In this document: piece by piece, positions 58,993 through 64,000 of the stretch | Layout of the letters: every line of letters starts with the position of its first letter | Position numbering within the stretch: position 1 is the stretch's first letter | Source of the DNA: Rhizobium sp. CC-YZS058 | Lineage (GTDB): Bacteria > Pseudomonadota > Alphaproteobacteria > Rhizobiales > Rhizobiaceae | Direction: 5' to 3' | DNA length: 64,000 bases | Assembly: GCF_034720595.1 (NCBI RefSeq) | Contig: NZ_JAYESJ010000001.1 | Span: forward strand, 1,266,001 to 1,330,000 | The notes under the pieces: model-generated | Database searches by the model: none | What the model was told of the DNA's origin: nothing | The model's input: the letters and a program-made list of their open reading frames with translations, nothing else | Made by a program: the position numbers and the translations under genes

Positions 58993-59062
58993 ATTTTCTA
59001 AGCGTCAACTGCGGCTAACACGTAAGAATCGCACAAGGCTCCAGCCTGGGGCAGGCCAGGAT

Positions 59063-59081
59063 GGTTAATCCTTTGTTAACC
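59063..59081. promoter_or_regulatory. CtrA-type box before minC
   Basis: GGTTAA-N7-TTAACC, which contains TTAA-N7-TTAAC, the full consensus for the cell-cycle regulator CtrA. It is also a perfect palindrome, 40 bases before ATG 59121. If translation began at the in-frame ATG 59061, the box would be inside the gene, which favours the later start. Confidence 0.65.
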
Positions 59082-59120
59082 ATTCCAACCCTAGAACATG
59101 GCAACGATTTCTTAACCTCG

Positions 59121-59864
59121 ATGAACGAAGTGCTAACAGATCCCCGCTCCATCCGTATCAAGGGCCGTTCCTTCCTGGCCGTCGTCCTTTCGCCGGATCT
59201 GCCATTGGATCAATGGCTTGTGCGGCTTGACGATCTCGCTGCCCGTTCGGCTGGCTTCTTTTTCGGCCGTCCGGCCGTGCTCGATGTCGCCGATCTGCAG
59301 CTCGACAAGGCGGGTCTGAAGGCACTGCTCGCCGAGCTCGCCGCCCGCAATGTCAGCATCATGGGCATCGAGGGCGCGCGGCCGTCGCTGATCAGCCCCG
59401 GCATGCCGCCGGCGCTCAAGGGCGGCCGTCCGGCCTCCGATTTCGAGGTGAAACAGAGCGATCCGGCCGAGCCGGCGGACGCGGCGGAAGCGCCGCGCGT
59501 CATCGAACCGCCGGCTTCGGAGATGCGGCCGTCGTCTCCGTCACTCGTCATCAACGAACCCGTAAGGTCCGGGCAATCCGTGATCTTTACAGAAGGAGAC
59601 GTGACCGTGATCGGGTCCGTCGCTTCCGGCGCCGAAGTCATCGCCGGCGGCTCCGTCCATATCTACGGCACGCTGCGCGGCCGGGCCATGGCGGGATCGA
59701 TCGGCAATGCCGGGGCGCGCATCTTCTGCCGAAAGCTCGAAGCCGAGCTGGTGGCGATCGATGGTGTCTACAAGGTGGCCGAAGACATTTCGCCCAGCCT
59801 GCGCGGCCAGCCCGTGCAGCTCTGGCTCGAAGACGATGCGATCAAGGCAGAGAAACTCAATTGA
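59121..59864 (+). CDS. minC: Septum site-determining protein MinC
   Basis: A 247-aa inhibitor of FtsZ assembly. The N-terminal domain begins SIRIKGRSFLAVVLSPDLPLDQWLV; a Pro/Ala-rich linker follows; the C-terminal right-handed beta-helix is clear in VIGSVASGAEVIAGGSVHIYGTLRGRAMAG and IFCRKLEAELVAIDGVYK. ATG 59121 is used; an in-frame ATG at 59061 lies before the CtrA-type box. minD follows after 29 bases. Confidence 0.93.
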   Translation: MNEVLTDPRSIRIKGRSFLAVVLSPDLPLDQWLVRLDDLAARSAGFFFGRPAVLDVADLQLDKAGLKALLAELAARNVSIMGIEGARPSLISPGMPPALKGGRPASDFEVKQSDPAEPADAAEAPRVIEPPASEMRPSSPSLVINEPVRSGQSVIFTEGDVTVIGSVASGAEVIAGGSVHIYGTLRGRAMAGSIGNAGARIFCRKLEAELVAIDGVYKVAEDISPSLRGQPVQLWLEDDAIKAEKLN

Positions 59865-59893
59865 GCCAGAACGGCCAGCAACAGGAGAGCAAG

Positions 59894-60709
59894 ATGGGGA
59901 AGGTTATCGTCGTCACTTCCGGCAAGGGCGGGGTTGGCAAGACAACCTCGACAGCCGCGCTCGGCGCAGCGCTTGCGCAACGGGGCGAAAAGGTCGCGGT
60001 CGTCGATTTCGACGTCGGGCTGCGCAATCTGGATCTGGTCATGGGTGCCGAACGGCGCGTGGTCTATGATCTCATCAACGTCATCCAGGGCGACGCCAAG
60101 CTGCCGCAGGCGCTGATCCGCGACAAGCGGGTCGAAACCCTGTTCCTGCTGCCGGCCTCCCAGACCCGCGACAAGGACAACCTGACCCAAGAAGGCGTCG
60201 AGCGCGTCATCGGCGAACTCAAGGAGCATTTCGACTGGATCATCTGCGACAGCCCGGCCGGTATCGAACGCGGCGCGACGCTGGCCATGCGCCACGCGGA
60301 TGTGGCTGTCGTCGTCACCAACCCGGAAGTCTCTTCCGTGCGCGACAGCGACCGCATCATCGGCCTGCTCGATTCCAAGACGATGAAGGCCGAGCGCGGC
60401 GAGCGGATGGAAAAGCATTTGCTTTTGACCCGCTTCGACCAGGCCCGCGCCGAGCGGGGCGACATGCTGAAGGTCGAGGACGTGCTGGAGATCCTGTCGA
60501 TCCCGCTGCTCGGCATCATTCCGGAAAGCATGGACGTGCTTCGCGCTTCCAACCTCGGTGCGCCGGTGACAGTGGCCGATGCGCGTTGCGCCCCCTCCAT
60601 GGCCTATTTCGACGCCGCACGCCGACTGGCCGGCGAAACGCTGCCGGTCACCATCCCGGGCGAGAAGCGTGGTCTGTTCGGCAAGATCTTCGCACGGAGG
60701 GCCGCATGA
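59894..60709 (+). CDS. minD: Septum site-determining ATPase MinD
   Basis: A 271-aa ParA/MinD-type ATPase that binds the membrane in its ATP form and recruits MinC. The deviant Walker A is [11 protein letters not shown], followed by [16 protein letters not shown] and [12 protein letters not shown]. The C-terminal amphipathic helix [14 protein letters not shown] is the membrane-targeting sequence. AGGAGAG lies about 5-10 bases before ATG 59894. minE starts inside the last codons (ATGA overlap). Confidence 0.96.
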
Positions 60710-60966
60710 ACATTTTCCGCCTTTTCGGCAAACAGCAATCCGCGCCCCAGGCGCGCGAGCGCCTGCAGGTGCTGCTCGCCCATGAGCGCGCCTCGGCCGG
60801 ATCCGATCTCGTGGCGGTGCTGCGCGAGGAGATCCTGGCGGTCATCGCCAAGCATGTTCAGGTTGATGCCGACCGCGTGCGCGTGAAGATGGACCGCGAC
60901 GAGCACATGTCGATCCTGGAGATCGATGTCGAGATTCCGCTCGGCGCCATGCCGAAAGCCGCCTGA
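60706..60966 (+). CDS. minE: Cell division topological specificity factor MinE
   Basis: An 86-aa protein that stimulates MinD ATPase and drives Min oscillation. The N-terminal membrane/MinD-binding part is [29 protein letters not shown], the dimer domain [20 protein letters not shown] and the final strand [14 protein letters not shown] overlaps the minD stop by four bases. Confidence 0.96.
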
Positions 60967-61224: not shown

Positions 61225-61455
61225 TCAGCAATGGCCCGCCTTCTCACTCAAAAGCAGGTTCACCTGATCCTCGGGAATAACCGGGCCAAGTTCCTTGCTG
61301 AGATCAGCCACAAGCGAACTCAAAGCGGCCTCGAGATAATGGGCGGCCGCTGAGGCCTTCACATCCCGCGCACCGTCGCGTGCGTAAGTGATGACGCGGA
61401 TCAAGCCGATCAACTCTTCGCGCCGGCTTTCCTGCGTACTCTCCATTGCGTCCAC
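61225..61455 (-). CDS. Small unknown protein downstream of the YcaO-TfuA genes
   Basis: A 76-aa soluble protein that I do not recognise. It looks mostly helical (SRREELIGLIRVITYARDGA and SAAAHYLEAALSSLVADLS). GTG 61455 has AGGGGGA four bases upstream; ATG 61446 is the alternative; the frame is open back to 61545, but that part has an odd Cys-rich start. It lies 121 bases after tfuA on the same strand and could be the last gene of that operon or a separate unit. Confidence 0.55.
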   Translation of the reverse strand: MDAMESTQESRREELIGLIRVITYARDGARDVKASAAAHYLEAALSSLVADLSKELGPVIPEDQVNLLLSEKAGHC

Positions 61456-61576
61456 GGAATCCCCCTGTAACTGACAGGCTTCATTAAACATGCCCGCAAT
61501 GAAAAAGCCCGTTGCATCGGCGTTGCACACGCAAAGGATGTTCATCCTGTGGTTAGTTCACCCTTAGGGCAGTCGT

Positions 61577-62272
61577 TCAGTCCGAATCCGGTAGAAGATG
61601 CAGGGTCCAATCAGGAAGTCGTTTAAAAACAGCAGGTTGTGTTAGGTTTATCTCATGGAGAAGCGCAAGCGCATCCTGTCGCTTCGGGTCCGTTGCATGG
61701 GCCAGGATCCGTTGCATGCTCTTTGTGTTTGCTCCCACGAACATGTCGACGATTCGCCGCCAGCTGCGCTCCTTGAAGTGGATGGCGCGTGCGGCACGCG
61801 CCCAGTCCCGCGCTTCGTCCGGTGAAATCGCGCCGGCCTGCAAGGCAGTCTCAAGGGTTGCATCGACGGTCACCAGGGGGACGCTCAAGGGCGGGTAGCC
61901 GAGTTCGGCCGGGCCGTGCTGCAGAGCGACATCTCCATCGTCGATCCGGCGCCCGCTGCGATAGTCCTCGTAGATGCGGCCGACCCCGCGCATGCCGAAC
62001 GGCGCGCATTCGACCGCCCGCAGCGCCCCCATGCTCGCCGCTCCAAGGACGGGCACGCCACGCGACAGGGCCAGCAGGATCTCCTTGTGCCAGACGGGCC
62101 GGACATGCTCGAAGATCCCATCGATCAGACCGATCGCCGCGGCGCCCTCCTCGAGCGCACGGCGCAGGTCGCCGCGCTGTGCCGGTGGTCGGATCTCGAT
62201 ATCCTCAGCCCCCATCGCGCGGACGATGGCCGCAGCATCCGGCAGGCTGGGACCGACGAAGACGACCTTCAT
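61577..62272 (-). CDS. tfuA: TfuA-like protein
   Basis: A 231-aa protein of the TfuA family, first seen with rhizobial trifolitoxin genes. TfuA proteins act with YcaO enzymes, and this pair is linked to backbone thioamide formation. The family core is unmistakable: VGPSLPDA at the start, then VPVLGAASMGALRAVECAPFGMRGVG, RIYEDYRSGRRIDDGDVAL, and HFKERSWRRIVDM. The start codon overlaps the ycaO stop by four bases (ATGA), so the two are co-translated. Confidence 0.9.
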   Translation of the reverse strand: MKVVFVGPSLPDAAAIVRAMGAEDIEIRPPAQRGDLRRALEEGAAAIGLIDGIFEHVRPVWHKEILLALSRGVPVLGAASMGALRAVECAPFGMRGVGRIYEDYRSGRRIDDGDVALQHGPAELGYPPLSVPLVTVDATLETALQAGAISPDEARDWARAARAIHFKERSWRRIVDMFVGANTKSMQRILAHATDPKRQDALALLHEINLTQPAVFKRLPDWTLHLLPDSD

Positions 62273-63450
62273 CCCAGCACCCGTCGGAGCGCGCGCGGAC
62301 CGAACCGCTGGCGCTGGGCGCCTGGCGGGTTTTCAAGCCCGGGAACGATGAGCTTGCCGACGGCGATCGGCAGACGCCCGTCGTCGAGGCGCAGCGCATA
62401 GGCCTCCGAAAGCCCGGCACTTGCCAGGCGCGCAAGCAGCAGAGGCAGGCGCTCGTTCGGCTCCGGGAGCGCGCCAGTGGAGCCGGGTCGGTGGAGGGGA
62501 TCGACCGGCGCGCGCAGGACCTTGCAGAGGTCCTCCGGGGCCGGGTCAGTGAAGAAGGCGGCGGGGACGTCGTCGCGCGCACCGCCGATGAAGGTGAGGC
62601 GCGATTGTGCGGCCTCCGTGATGGCGCGGGCGGCGGCCCCGGCAGCGGTAAAGTGCGCGCCGCTGCCAAGCGTGAGATCGACATGCCGGACCGCGCCCCC
62701 TGCAAGCACGGCGGCAGGGGCGATCAACGCCATGAAGCAGGGGAGGTTCAGGTCGGAGGAGATGTCGAACAGGCGGATGATGAGCCCCGCGCGCTCGATT
62801 CGCTGAACGAGATCGTCGATGGTCGGGGTGGCAAGGCAGGCCGGATCGATCGCCGGCGGCCGGCGGGTGGGCGGCGTCACGTGCCACAGCGTCAGCGCAT
62901 CGCGCTCCACCCGTTCCAGTAGGCCGTGCAACACCGCTTCGTCCCACGTATTGCCGGAAGCCAGCCCGTCGGAGGAGCGCCAATAGCGCGGCTTCAGCTG
63001 CGTCCGGTCGAGATGAACGGCATCGAAGGGGAGGTGGACCGTGTGGCCTGAAAGAAGATTCTCGGCCGGGGTCCAGTCGATGACCTCGTCCGGTGCAACC
63101 GGCTCGGCCCGAGGGCTGAGAAGCGTCTCCAGCGGATCGACGGATCCGCCATCCGCCTCGATGTCCCGGCTTGAGGCGGAGCGCCGGACGCAGGAGGGGC
63201 TGGACGCGATGACGCGCTCGACCGCCTCCATGACCGCGGAGGCCTGCGCGTCCTCATCGGTCAGGCCCTTGCCCTGGGCAATGGCGATGGCGCGCGCATT
63301 GGGAGTGACCGCGAACCAGACGGGAATGCCGACTCGATCAAGGCCGGTCTGCGACCCGACGCGTGTGATGCCAAGCGCAGGCAGATGCGGCGTGATCAGC
63401 GCGAGGGTTTCGGCGGGCGCGCGTGACCGGTAGGACCCCGCCGTCGTCAT
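62269..63450 (-). CDS. YcaO-domain protein (peptide backbone-modifying enzyme)
   Basis: A 393-aa YcaO protein that would use ATP to activate a peptide amide, giving azolines or, with TfuA, thioamides. The ATP-site acidic motifs are seen in DAQASAVMEAVERVIA, AVLHGLLERVERDALTLWH, and ARAITEAAQSRLTFIGGARDD. No E1/RRE partner domain is fused to it, and the C-terminus lacks the Pro-rich end of azoline-forming members, which fits a TfuA-dependent enzyme. It is 40 bases downstream of the small peptide gene and overlaps tfuA by four bases. Confidence 0.9.
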   Translation of the reverse strand: MTTAGSYRSRAPAETLALITPHLPALGITRVGSQTGLDRVGIPVWFAVTPNARAIAIAQGKGLTDEDAQASAVMEAVERVIASSPSCVRRSASSRDIEADGGSVDPLETLLSPRAEPVAPDEVIDWTPAENLLSGHTVHLPFDAVHLDRTQLKPRYWRSSDGLASGNTWDEAVLHGLLERVERDALTLWHVTPPTRRPPAIDPACLATPTIDDLVQRIERAGLIIRLFDISSDLNLPCFMALIAPAAVLAGGAVRHVDLTLGSGAHFTAAGAAARAITEAAQSRLTFIGGARDDVPAAFFTDPAPEDLCKVLRAPVDPLHRPGSTGALPEPNERLPLLLARLASAGLSEAYALRLDDGRLPIAVGKLIVPGLENPPGAQRQRFGPRALRRVLG

Positions 63451-63490
63451 GGGTCGATGACGGCGGGACCGGTTTCAGGGCCGCAAGGCC

Positions 63491-63703
63491 TCATCGGCCT
63501 TCATAATGGCCGGCGGCAGCTTCGGAGGCCGAGGAGATCGCGACCGCAAAGTCGACGCCCTTCGTCACCAGCCCGCTGCGCGGGGTGCCGGAAGCAAGCG
63601 CCCCGGCGGACTTGTCCTTGAACGGAGTGACCGTGCCGGCGCCGAGATCGGCGATCCACAGTCCGTCTTCGCCTTCTATTCCAAGAATTACAACCTGAGC
63701 CAT
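63491..63703 (-). CDS. Candidate RiPP precursor peptide
   Basis: A 70-aa peptide without Cys. The first half (starting MAQVVILGIEGEDGLWIADLGA) looks like a beta-hairpin leader. The second half is rich in Gly, Ala, Ser and Thr, with KSAGALASGTPRSGLVTKGV and then FAVAISSASEAAAGHYEGR at the end. AAGGGGA lies five bases before ATG 63703, a good ribosome site. It sits 14 bases after the TPR gene stop and 40 bases before ycaO, the usual place for a precursor. The precursor role is inferred from position, size and composition; it could also be an accessory protein. Confidence 0.65.
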   Translation of the reverse strand: MAQVVILGIEGEDGLWIADLGAGTVTPFKDKSAGALASGTPRSGLVTKGVDFAVAISSASEAAAGHYEGR

Positions 63704-63717
63704 GTCATTCCCCTTGT

Positions 63718-64000
63718 CTAGAAACCGGCTTTCCGCAAGCCTTCGCGATAGAGTTCGCGCTGCCAACTTTCCCGGTTGGGAACGACCTCGAGCCAGCGCT
63801 CCAACTCGAAGTCGGGATGTTCACGCAAGACACGCTGCTTATATACACGCGCTTGCCGTGCATTGCCAAGCATTCCCCAACTCGCGGCAGCCAATCTGTC
63901 GGCCGGTTTCGGGTTTTCCATGCGTTTGATATAGGCGAGCGCGGCTTCGAACCGGCCGAGGAAGTAGCAGGCCCCGGCAGCGGTCCAGAGATAGCTGTCC
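63718..64000 (-). CDS. Tetratricopeptide-repeat protein, C-terminal part (5' end outside window)
   Basis: Ninety-four residues are visible, running off the window edge. LWTAAGACYFLGRFEAALAYI and RLAAASWGMLGNARQARVYKQ are TPR-type helix pairs, and the end WQRELYREGLRKAGF is the usual C-terminus of rhizobial proteins that carry a cyclase or winged-helix domain followed by TPRs. It is therefore probably a regulator or sensor for the operon, but the N-terminal domain cannot be seen. It is the first gene of the set TPR, small peptide, ycaO, tfuA in this window. Confidence 0.7.
   Translation of the reverse strand, partial: DSYLWTAAGACYFLGRFEAALAYIKRMENPKPADRLAAASWGMLGNARQARVYKQRVLREHPDFELERWLEVVPNRESWQRELYREGLRKAGF

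What the first reader, a model, noticed from the sequence alone, without database searches (positions are those of the whole stretch)
61225..64000. Compact YcaO-TfuA operon, candidate thioamide-type RiPP cluster
Five minus-strand genes lie in tight order: TPR protein, 70-aa peptide, YcaO enzyme, TfuA-like protein, small unknown protein. Gaps are 14, 40, -4 and 121 bases. YcaO with TfuA is known from thioviridamide-type peptides, methyl-CoM reductase and trifolitoxin-linked genes. No azoline dehydrogenase, RRE partner, protease or exporter gene is visible, so this is a minimal and possibly undescribed layout.
Basis: partly seen in the sequence, partly recalled or inferred. Interest (0 to 1): 0.85.

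Follow-up and report, generated by a model that had tools for sequence, protein, structure and literature searches.

The report
Modular thioamide-peptide operon of rhizobia
A gene set shared by many rhizobia encodes a small precursor peptide and the enzyme pair expected to replace an oxygen with sulfur in its backbone; some relatives carry several copies of the predicted active segment, and what the product does is unknown.

Summary
The window holds the 3' part of an operon that in full reads XRE regulator – TPR protein with a winged-helix-like start – precursor peptide – YcaO – TfuA – small protein. The peptide is a RiPP-precursor family: a conserved, perhaps folded leader, then a variable core of type G-x-hydrophobic-D/E (GHYE here), which in some relatives stands in 2 to about 8 tandem copies. 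Of the best 80 of 357 related YcaO loci in named genomes, 70 have the peptide adjacent and 63 the whole six-gene order. In 199 genomes of the family, peptide and this YcaO clade occur together in 31 and neither occurs alone (bit cut set post hoc). In 10 of 10 genomes with a peptide-less ycaO locus, the peptide sits elsewhere beside a TPR gene. Best reading: YcaO–TfuA thioamidates the core, most likely at its glycine (Ser in 6 of 73 peptides). It resembles thiovarsolin pathways but has a new precursor family and constant partner genes. The thioamide itself is inferred; no mass spectrum exists.

The parts
63718..64000 (-). 3' part of the TPR protein gene; the full gene runs to window-scale position 65793 (L002:3719-5794:-, 691 aa): winged-helix/BTAD-like N-terminus, alpha/beta domain, TPR superhelix
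   Evidence: AlphaFold2 model of the L132 homologue, mean pLDDT 86.4; Foldseek TPR proteins, CadC 3ly8 at rank 32
63491..63703 (-). precursor peptide, 70 aa: leader residues 1 to about 56, core region about 57-70 with one G-H-Y-E unit (residues 65-68)
   Evidence: the leader/core border is my reading of the alignments
63494..63511 (-). predicted core GHYEGR, the C-terminal six codons; Gly65 is the predicted thioamide site
   Evidence: Gly at this column in 20 of 21 (A1) and 50 of 54 (A4) rows, Ser in the rest; the thioamide site is inferred
62269..63450 (-). YcaO, predicted ATP-dependent thioamide synthetase
   Evidence: PF02624 6.3e-67; best NCBIfam TIGR03266, 184.9 bits against a cut-off of 365; best solved relative MJ1094/6pe3, profile E 4.5e-60; motifs intact
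61577..62272 (-). TfuA, predicted sulfide-delivering hydrolase; start overlaps the ycaO stop by 4 bases
   Evidence: PF07812 3.3e-42; 6xp8 6.4e-29; K63 and S80 invariant in 75 of 75 TfuA sequences aligned
61225..61455 (-). small conserved protein, 76 aa from GTG 61455 (or 106 aa from ATG 61545); no Pfam family found
   Evidence: homologue behind TfuA or YcaO in 78 of 80 loci, 24 of 26 first-sample loci, 13 of 18 order-level loci; no Pfam match at E 0.01 in 7 homologues

Best explanation
This is a minimal RiPP operon. Two regulator-like genes (an XRE HTH protein and a protein with a winged-helix/BTAD-like start and a TPR superhelix) stand in front of a 70-aa precursor. The N-terminal leader of the precursor is recognised by the YcaO-TfuA pair. 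TfuA releases sulfide from a ThiS-type thiocarboxylate carrier made elsewhere in the genome; YcaO uses ATP to activate a backbone amide in the C-terminal core and puts sulfur in place of oxygen, most likely on the glycine of the G-x-hydrophobic-Asp/Glu unit. Proteases of the host cell then release a very short thioamidated peptide. Where the precursor has several copies of one core, each round of translation yields several copies of the same product. Shown by sequence: operon composition, leader/core build, tandem core copies, genome-wide co-retention, intact enzyme motifs. Inferred: thioamide chemistry, the Gly site, the sulfur carrier, leader recognition, cleavage, and the role of the TPR protein.
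For: Fixed gene order: of the best 80 of 357 YcaO relatives in named genomes, 63 have all six genes in order (61 with one peptide, 2 with two) and 70 have the peptide adjacent. Co-occurrence in 199 family genomes: 31 with both peptide and this YcaO clade, 0 with one alone, 168 with neither; 0 of the 33 genomes with only lower-scoring YcaO matches have the peptide; all 31 are also among the 54 genomes with TfuA. Split arrangements keep the parts: 10 of 10 genomes with a peptide-less ycaO locus carry TPR-peptide at another place; four genomes whose TPR-peptide-ycaO locus has no TfuA (L162, L185, L191, L208) have a stand-alone TfuA elsewhere; both genomes with a ycaO-less TPR-peptide locus have the YcaO clade elsewhere. 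Modular cores: 16 of 115 distinct peptides repeat a 4-mer three or more times against 0.04% of shuffles. Leader: three strands at pLDDT 69-76; residues 51-70 at 44-50. Cores such as GHYE, GLFD, GYMD and GHVD have no Cys, Ser or Thr, which heterocyclisation needs (established chemistry). YcaO is nearest the McrA-type enzyme and keeps a Met and a His (M74 invariant, H175 nearly) that I equate with the residues PMC8120280 calls preferred in TfuA-linked YcaO (section 15). TfuA keeps an invariant Lys and Ser. Two ThiS-family matches lie in the genome.
Against: No product or mass spectrum. The core Gly is Ser in 6, Thr in 1 of 73 peptides, and one (L166) lacks the D/E; a divergent subset (L050, L114, L120-L125) has other cores such as RSDAASHxYF, and L115-L117 and L119 have SGRLS-type cores, so the modified residue may differ or not be Gly. 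Some cores do contain Ser (GRSD, L186) or Cys (GLCE, L113). 10 of 80 ycaO loci lack the peptide next door. The 80 are the loci most like the window's YcaO, so the fractions describe that clade only. The small gene is missing in 5 of 18 order-level loci. Enzymes score below the curated NCBIfam cut-offs for the McrA pair. No protease, exporter or immunity gene was found in the operon.
Confidence: 0.72

Rival explanations
1. The mature thioamide peptide is a signal sensed by the operon's own TPR protein: the precursor makes several copies of one short peptide, the TPR domain binds it inside the cell, and the DNA-binding-like domain switches the operon or other genes (works like, but is not shown to be, an RRNPP-type peptide circuit).
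For: A TPR gene stands beside the peptide in 30 of 30 peptide loci of the order search, the window's own included, and in 11 of 11 fetched loci of split genomes without ycaO in the stretch (L211-L221); also in L109 and L110. The model has a DNA-binding-like N-terminus and a TPR superhelix. In 62 loci, core distances follow TPR distances with YcaO, TfuA and HTH controlled (r 0.24, permutation p 0.001), and follow YcaO with the TPR halves, TfuA and HTH controlled less (r 0.07, p 0.07). Copies of the core inside one precursor are mostly identical, as in a precursor that raises dose.
Against: The two correlations have unequal control sets, and with equal sets the taxon bootstrap of the TPR-minus-YcaO difference spans zero (-0.03 to 0.25; -0.07 to 0.25 after thinning). 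The leader also follows the TPR and HTH proteins. Related sequences inflate such correlations. In L234 (G586) a TPR gene with a large internal deletion stands before ycaO without a detected peptide. No exporter or importer in the operon. Regulators beside RiPP genes are common.
Confidence: 0.28
2. The product is a secreted antibacterial or metal-binding small molecule, with the two regulators merely controlling it.
For: Known thioamidated RiPPs are often bioactive (PMC8120280, abstract and parts seen); core sequences differ between species. In some genus mates an ABC-transporter ATPase gene lies about 1.2 kb behind TfuA on the other strand (L039:10038-12269:-).
Against: Apart from the cassette genes and the genes of another TfuA type, the widest clusters of neighbouring ORFs are ABC-transporter ATPases (12 loci, single-linkage, varied positions) and LysR regulators (8 loci) (representatives scanned); no transporter or immunity gene has a fixed place, and the window's operon is followed by minCDE instead. 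Purifying selection on the peptide does not suggest an arms race.
Confidence: 0.25
3. YcaO-TfuA modifies a cell protein, as E. coli YcaO does with uL16 and the archaeal pair with McrA, and the small peptide is a helper or regulator, not the substrate.
Against: Tandem repeats confined to the C-terminal part and their variable number are hard to explain for a helper; peptide and YcaO clade have the same distribution in 199 genomes.
Confidence: 0.1
4. YcaO makes an azoline or amidine rather than a thioamide.
For: YcaO proteins also form azolines and amidines (introduction passage of PMC8442711).
Against: All 31 peptide-bearing genomes are among the genomes with TfuA, and the six Sinorhizobium/Ensifer genomes have TfuA too; most cores lack Cys, Ser and Thr; no dehydrogenase or docking partner was found in the operon.
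Confidence: 0.06

Closest known systems
Thiovarsolins (varA-varY-varT, Streptomyces varsoviensis; PMC6511847, passages seen)
   Same: Precursor with a leader and, across the family, none to five near-identical core repeats; YcaO + TfuA + precursor are sufficient for thiovarsolin B; very short linear thioamidated product
   Different: Core there is APR/GPR with the thioamide between Pro and Arg, plus a heme oxygenase; here the core is G-x-hydrophobic-D/E, the leader was not compared with VarA by any tool, and XRE/TPR genes and the small protein are constant partners; Hyphomicrobiales instead of Actinobacteria
McrA thioglycine enzymes (archaeal YcaO-TfuA, TIGR03266/NF033432; PMC5589413, passages seen)
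   Same: Nearest curated families and nearest solved YcaO (MJ1094); glycine as likely target
   Different: Scores below the equivalog cut-offs (184.9 of 365; 175.3 of 235.2); the likely substrate is a small adjacent precursor
TfuA-related RiPP clusters catalogued in Proteobacteria (PMC8120280; parts 1-3 of 6 and section 15 read, passages)
   Same: That survey counts over 500 TfuA clusters in Rhizobium and 797 precursor families, so members of this family are probably in its tables
   Different: The words tetratricopeptide and TPR do not occur in its main text, and the parts read describe no such leader, G-x-x-D/E core or small gene; its supplements could not be opened
Thioviridamide-type thioamitides and trifolitoxin (recalled)
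   Same: YcaO and TfuA present
   Different: No Cys in the window peptide and no further biosynthetic enzyme among the operon genes scanned
RRNPP peptide-sensing regulators of Firmicutes (recalled)
   Same: DNA-binding domain with TPR, gene next to a small peptide gene
   Different: BTAD-like winged helix and an extra alpha/beta domain, peptide predicted to be modified, Gram-negative host; ligand binding untested

Membership tests
TfuA-YcaO thioamidated RiPP | YcaO with ATP-binding motifs and TfuA-type residues | tested here: met
   PF02624 6.3e-67; many motif residues invariant in 25 of 25 aligned sequences, M74 among them, H175 at 90% or more; equating these with the residues named is my mapping
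TfuA-YcaO thioamidated RiPP | TfuA with a Ser-Lys pair | tested here: inconclusive
   K63 and S80 invariant in 75 of 75, also K167; that TfuA uses a Ser-Lys pair is from PMC13185837 (passages), which residues form it is my inference; 6xp8 has Arg in the place of K63 in the alignment, so another Lys may be meant
TfuA-YcaO thioamidated RiPP | adjacent precursor with conserved leader and variable core | tested here: met
   70 of 80 loci, alignments, core repeats
TfuA-YcaO thioamidated RiPP | thioamide in the product | not testable with these tools
   needs mass spectrometry
Thioviridamide-type thioamitide | precursor with C-terminal Cys and Ser/Thr for the AviCys-type ring, decarboxylase and dehydration genes (recalled) | tested here: not met
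   no Cys in the window peptide; no such enzyme among the operon genes scanned
McrA thioglycine YcaO/TfuA | above the NCBIfam equivalog cut-offs | tested here: not met
   TIGR03266 184.9 bits of 365, NF033432 175.3 of 235.2
Thiovarsolin family | modular repeated core | tested here: met
   in part of the relatives (16 of 115 with three or more copies of a 4-mer); the window copy has one core unit
Thiovarsolin family | APR/GPR core and heme oxygenase VarO | tested here: not met
   core GHYE; no such gene among the operon genes scanned
RRNPP-type peptide circuit | DNA-binding domain plus TPR next to its peptide gene | tested here: inconclusive
   architecture similar but the DNA-binding domain looks of another kind; Trans_reg_C only E 0.01, BTAD in 2 of 35 homologues
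RRNPP-type peptide circuit | regulator binds the mature peptide | not testable with these tools
   core-TPR covariation is suggestive only

The most novel reading that the evidence does not exclude
A thioamide-peptide communication circuit in rhizobia and agrobacteria: a multi-copy precursor yields a four- or five-residue thioglycine peptide that is the ligand of the neighbouring winged-helix/TPR regulator, so that species with different cores and matching TPR domains speak different dialects. The small helical protein would serve as an escort or adaptor for the YcaO-TfuA enzymes.
Probability: 0.22. Interest if true: 0.88.

Novelty: new variant of a known kind. Interest (0 to 1): 0.66.

Why it matters
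It gives a defined precursor family, with a predicted modification unit and natural copy-number variants, to the large set of uncharacterised TfuA clusters in rhizobia. It names constant partners, a TPR protein with a DNA-binding-like domain and a small protein without a Pfam match, whose role in a thioamide pathway is unexplained. The natural split-operon species let each part be tested apart. If the TPR protein senses the product, it would be a peptide-signalling system with backbone sulfur in a Gram-negative group of agricultural importance.
Full report
WHAT IS THERE. The window is G000:C1:1266001-1330000 of a 4.77 Mb genome. The five ORFs of the finding are all present at the stated places. 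The TPR gene runs out of the window; in full it encodes 691 aa (L002:3719-5794:-). A gene for a 155-aa XRE-type helix-turn-helix protein (PF01381, 1e-12) overlaps its start. The operon is therefore HTH - TPR - peptide - YcaO - TfuA - small protein. A genus mate (G002) has a contig of the same length as that of Ferranicluibacter rubi CRRU44 (807,428 bases), so the genome is most likely of that group in the Rhizobiaceae; this is an inference from contig lengths.

THE ENZYMES. YcaO matches PF02624 over its length and TfuA matches PF07812. The best NCBIfam families are the McrA-glycine thioamidation YcaO and TfuA, both below their cut-offs. In the PDB the nearest YcaO by sequence is MJ1094 (profile E 4.5e-60, next TruD at 1.7e-26), and the only TfuA match is 6xp8 (6.4e-29). 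Many motif residues are invariant in 25 of 25 aligned YcaO. K63 and S80 are invariant in 75 of 75 aligned TfuA, though 6xp8 has Arg in the place of K63. The genome has two ThiS-family matches as possible sulfur carriers.

THE PEPTIDE. Of 40 TfuA loci that I fetched from the matches encode a relative of the peptide by tblastn between a TPR gene and ycaO, 25 with a profile. Of the other 15, 10 carry another TfuA type, 4 have a TPR gene with another ORF in the peptide's place, and 1 has TfuA without ycaO. Most relatives share a leader (MAKVVVIGIPGExGLWxADLxAGTVT...KGVDFAVAVSS) followed by a short core; the most divergent ones keep little more than its first half. The core glycine is conserved in 20 of 21 (A1), 50 of 54 (A4) and 65 of 73 peptides; Ser replaces it in 6 of the 73. 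Cores read G-x-hydrophobic-D/E: GHYE (window), GLFD, GHVD, GVFD, GYMD, GLHE. In part of the relatives the core is repeated: GLHE x3 (L046, L144, L181, L184), GKLE/D x4 (L054), GYMD x3 (L061, L069), GFMD x3 (L174), GRMD x5 plus NRMD (L172), GFFE or GFLE x4 (L111, L112), GLFE x6 plus GLCE (L113). More distant members repeat longer units such as RSDAASHHYFPNRG (L122), RSDAASHYYYPS (L124) and RSDAASHIFY (L125). 16 of 115 distinct peptides have a 4-mer three or more times, against 0.04% of shuffled peptides. L050, L058, L143 and L164 encode two precursors before ycaO. dN/dS has a median of 0.40 over 554 pairs. AlphaFold2 gives three leader strands at pLDDT 69-76 and a low-confidence C-terminal part (mean 60.3, so the fold is only tentative).

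SPREAD AND CO-RETENTION. With the peptide profile, 30 of 397 genomes of the order have a match. All 30 fetched loci, the window's own among them, have a TPR match; 27 of 30 have ycaO in the fetched stretch, and one of the three misses is a contig end. In the class samples only the window's own genome matched (1 of 385; 1 of 376; partial scoring). The YcaO profile search of named genomes found 357 relatives and kept the best 80, in records named Agrobacterium, Rhizobium, Sinorhizobium, Ensifer, Neorhizobium, Shinella, Phyllobacterium, Hoeflea, Mesorhizobium and others. 70 of 80 have the peptide, 78 of 80 the small gene, 63 of 80 all six genes in order. In 199 genomes of the family, 31 have the peptide and the same 31 have a YcaO of at least 395 bits; the other 33 genomes with a YcaO match have no peptide. 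Ten of the 80 loci have ycaO without the peptide; all ten genomes encode the peptide elsewhere, beside a TPR match and without ycaO in the stretch (in L218 the contig ends 0.57 kb behind the peptide). One of them (G970) also has a second peptide beside another ycaO-tfuA (L222). Of five Sinorhizobium/Ensifer loci without TfuA behind YcaO, four (L162, L185, L191, L208) have a stand-alone TfuA elsewhere in the genome and one (L180) has it divergent, just upstream of the operon. Genomes G586 and G035, with a TPR-peptide pair lacking ycaO, have the YcaO clade elsewhere; in G586 that ycaO lies behind an HTH gene and a TPR gene with a large internal deletion, without a detected peptide (L234). Parts that have come apart on the chromosome are thus still kept together in the genome, and the pair that mostly stays together is TPR with peptide.

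THE TPR PROTEIN AND THE SMALL PROTEIN. A model of the L132 homologue (mean pLDDT 86.4) shows a winged-helix-like N-terminus, helices in the place of a BTAD, an alpha/beta domain and a TPR superhelix (the naming of the N-terminal part is mine). Foldseek returns TPR proteins, and CadC's periplasmic domain at rank 32. BTAD is recognised in only 2 of 35 homologues, so the regulator reading rests partly on the model. In 62 loci, distances of the core follow those of the TPR half after controlling for YcaO, TfuA and HTH (r 0.24, p 0.001); with YcaO, controlling for the TPR halves, TfuA and HTH, r is 0.07 (p 0.07); the bootstrap of the difference with equal controls includes zero. The small protein has no Pfam match at E 0.01. 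It follows TfuA or, where TfuA is absent, YcaO: 78 of 80 named loci, 24 of 26 cassette loci of the first sample, 13 of 18 order-level loci, and 1 of 15 loci without the cassette.

MECHANISM. By analogy with studied systems (thiovarsolin minimal set, PMC6511847 passages; TfuA as Ser-Lys hydrolase of ThiS-COSH, PMC13185837 passages), TfuA delivers sulfide and YcaO thioamidates the core. The Gly is the natural candidate because the McrA pair makes thioglycine (PMC5589413, passages) and because it is the most constant core residue. Cleavage must be by proteases outside the operon. The function of the product is open. I give a signalling role sensed by the TPR protein 0.28 and a secreted bioactive molecule 0.25.

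NOVELTY. The chemistry and the repeat logic are known kinds. The precursor family, its constant TPR partner and the sixth gene were not described in the papers found (searches; of these papers I saw listings, and passages or parts only of PMC8120280, PMC6511847, PMC5589413, PMC13063428, PMC13185837 and PMC8442711). PMC8120280 counts over 500 TfuA clusters in Rhizobium and probably contains members of this family in tables that I could not open.

Noticed in passing
L049, L051, L057, L070, L071, L073, L074, L078: A second TfuA/YcaO type in the same bacterial family, with a conserved protein of about 1000 aa upstream of YcaO (in L051 with AAA_16 and a weak guanylate-cyclase match) and a conserved one of about 400 aa without Pfam match behind TfuA; no related peptide.
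   Followed up: partly
L072:6063-6260 and L076:6314-6442: TPR-YcaO-TfuA loci with a different tiny ORF between TPR and YcaO whose C-terminus (SNIVHAVRFR) is the same in both: possibly another precursor family with the same partners.
   Followed up: no
L055:6032-6508 and L064:5995-6426 (both in the TfuA-forward orientation): Longer ORFs (158 and 143 aa) in the peptide position that begin like the leader but have a long further part.
   Followed up: no
L109:5539-8167: Two peptide matches flank one TPR gene, one of them divergent, with no ycaO next to them.
   Followed up: partly
L125:7110-7613: The repeat unit here carries part of the leader motif (GVDRAVAADTRSDAASHIFY), as if leader end and core were copied together.
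   Followed up: no
window 59061-60966 (+): MinC, MinD and MinE genes lie convergent to the operon.
   Followed up: no
L002:10622-12869 (+): Thiamine salvage genes (hydroxyethylthiazole kinase and phosphomethylpyrimidine kinase) lie about 4.4 kb from the operon start on the other strand.
   Followed up: partly
L162, L167, L180, L208: In Sinorhizobium/Ensifer the ycaO locus lies beside one conserved 268-aa ORF; L167 (Ensifer aridi) has ycaO there without TPR and peptide, so the split may be a local loss.
   Followed up: partly
L234: HTH, a TPR gene with a large internal deletion and ycaO-tfuA without a detected peptide, while the same genome (G586) has a TPR-peptide pair elsewhere: a decaying cassette that may show how splits arise.
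   Followed up: partly
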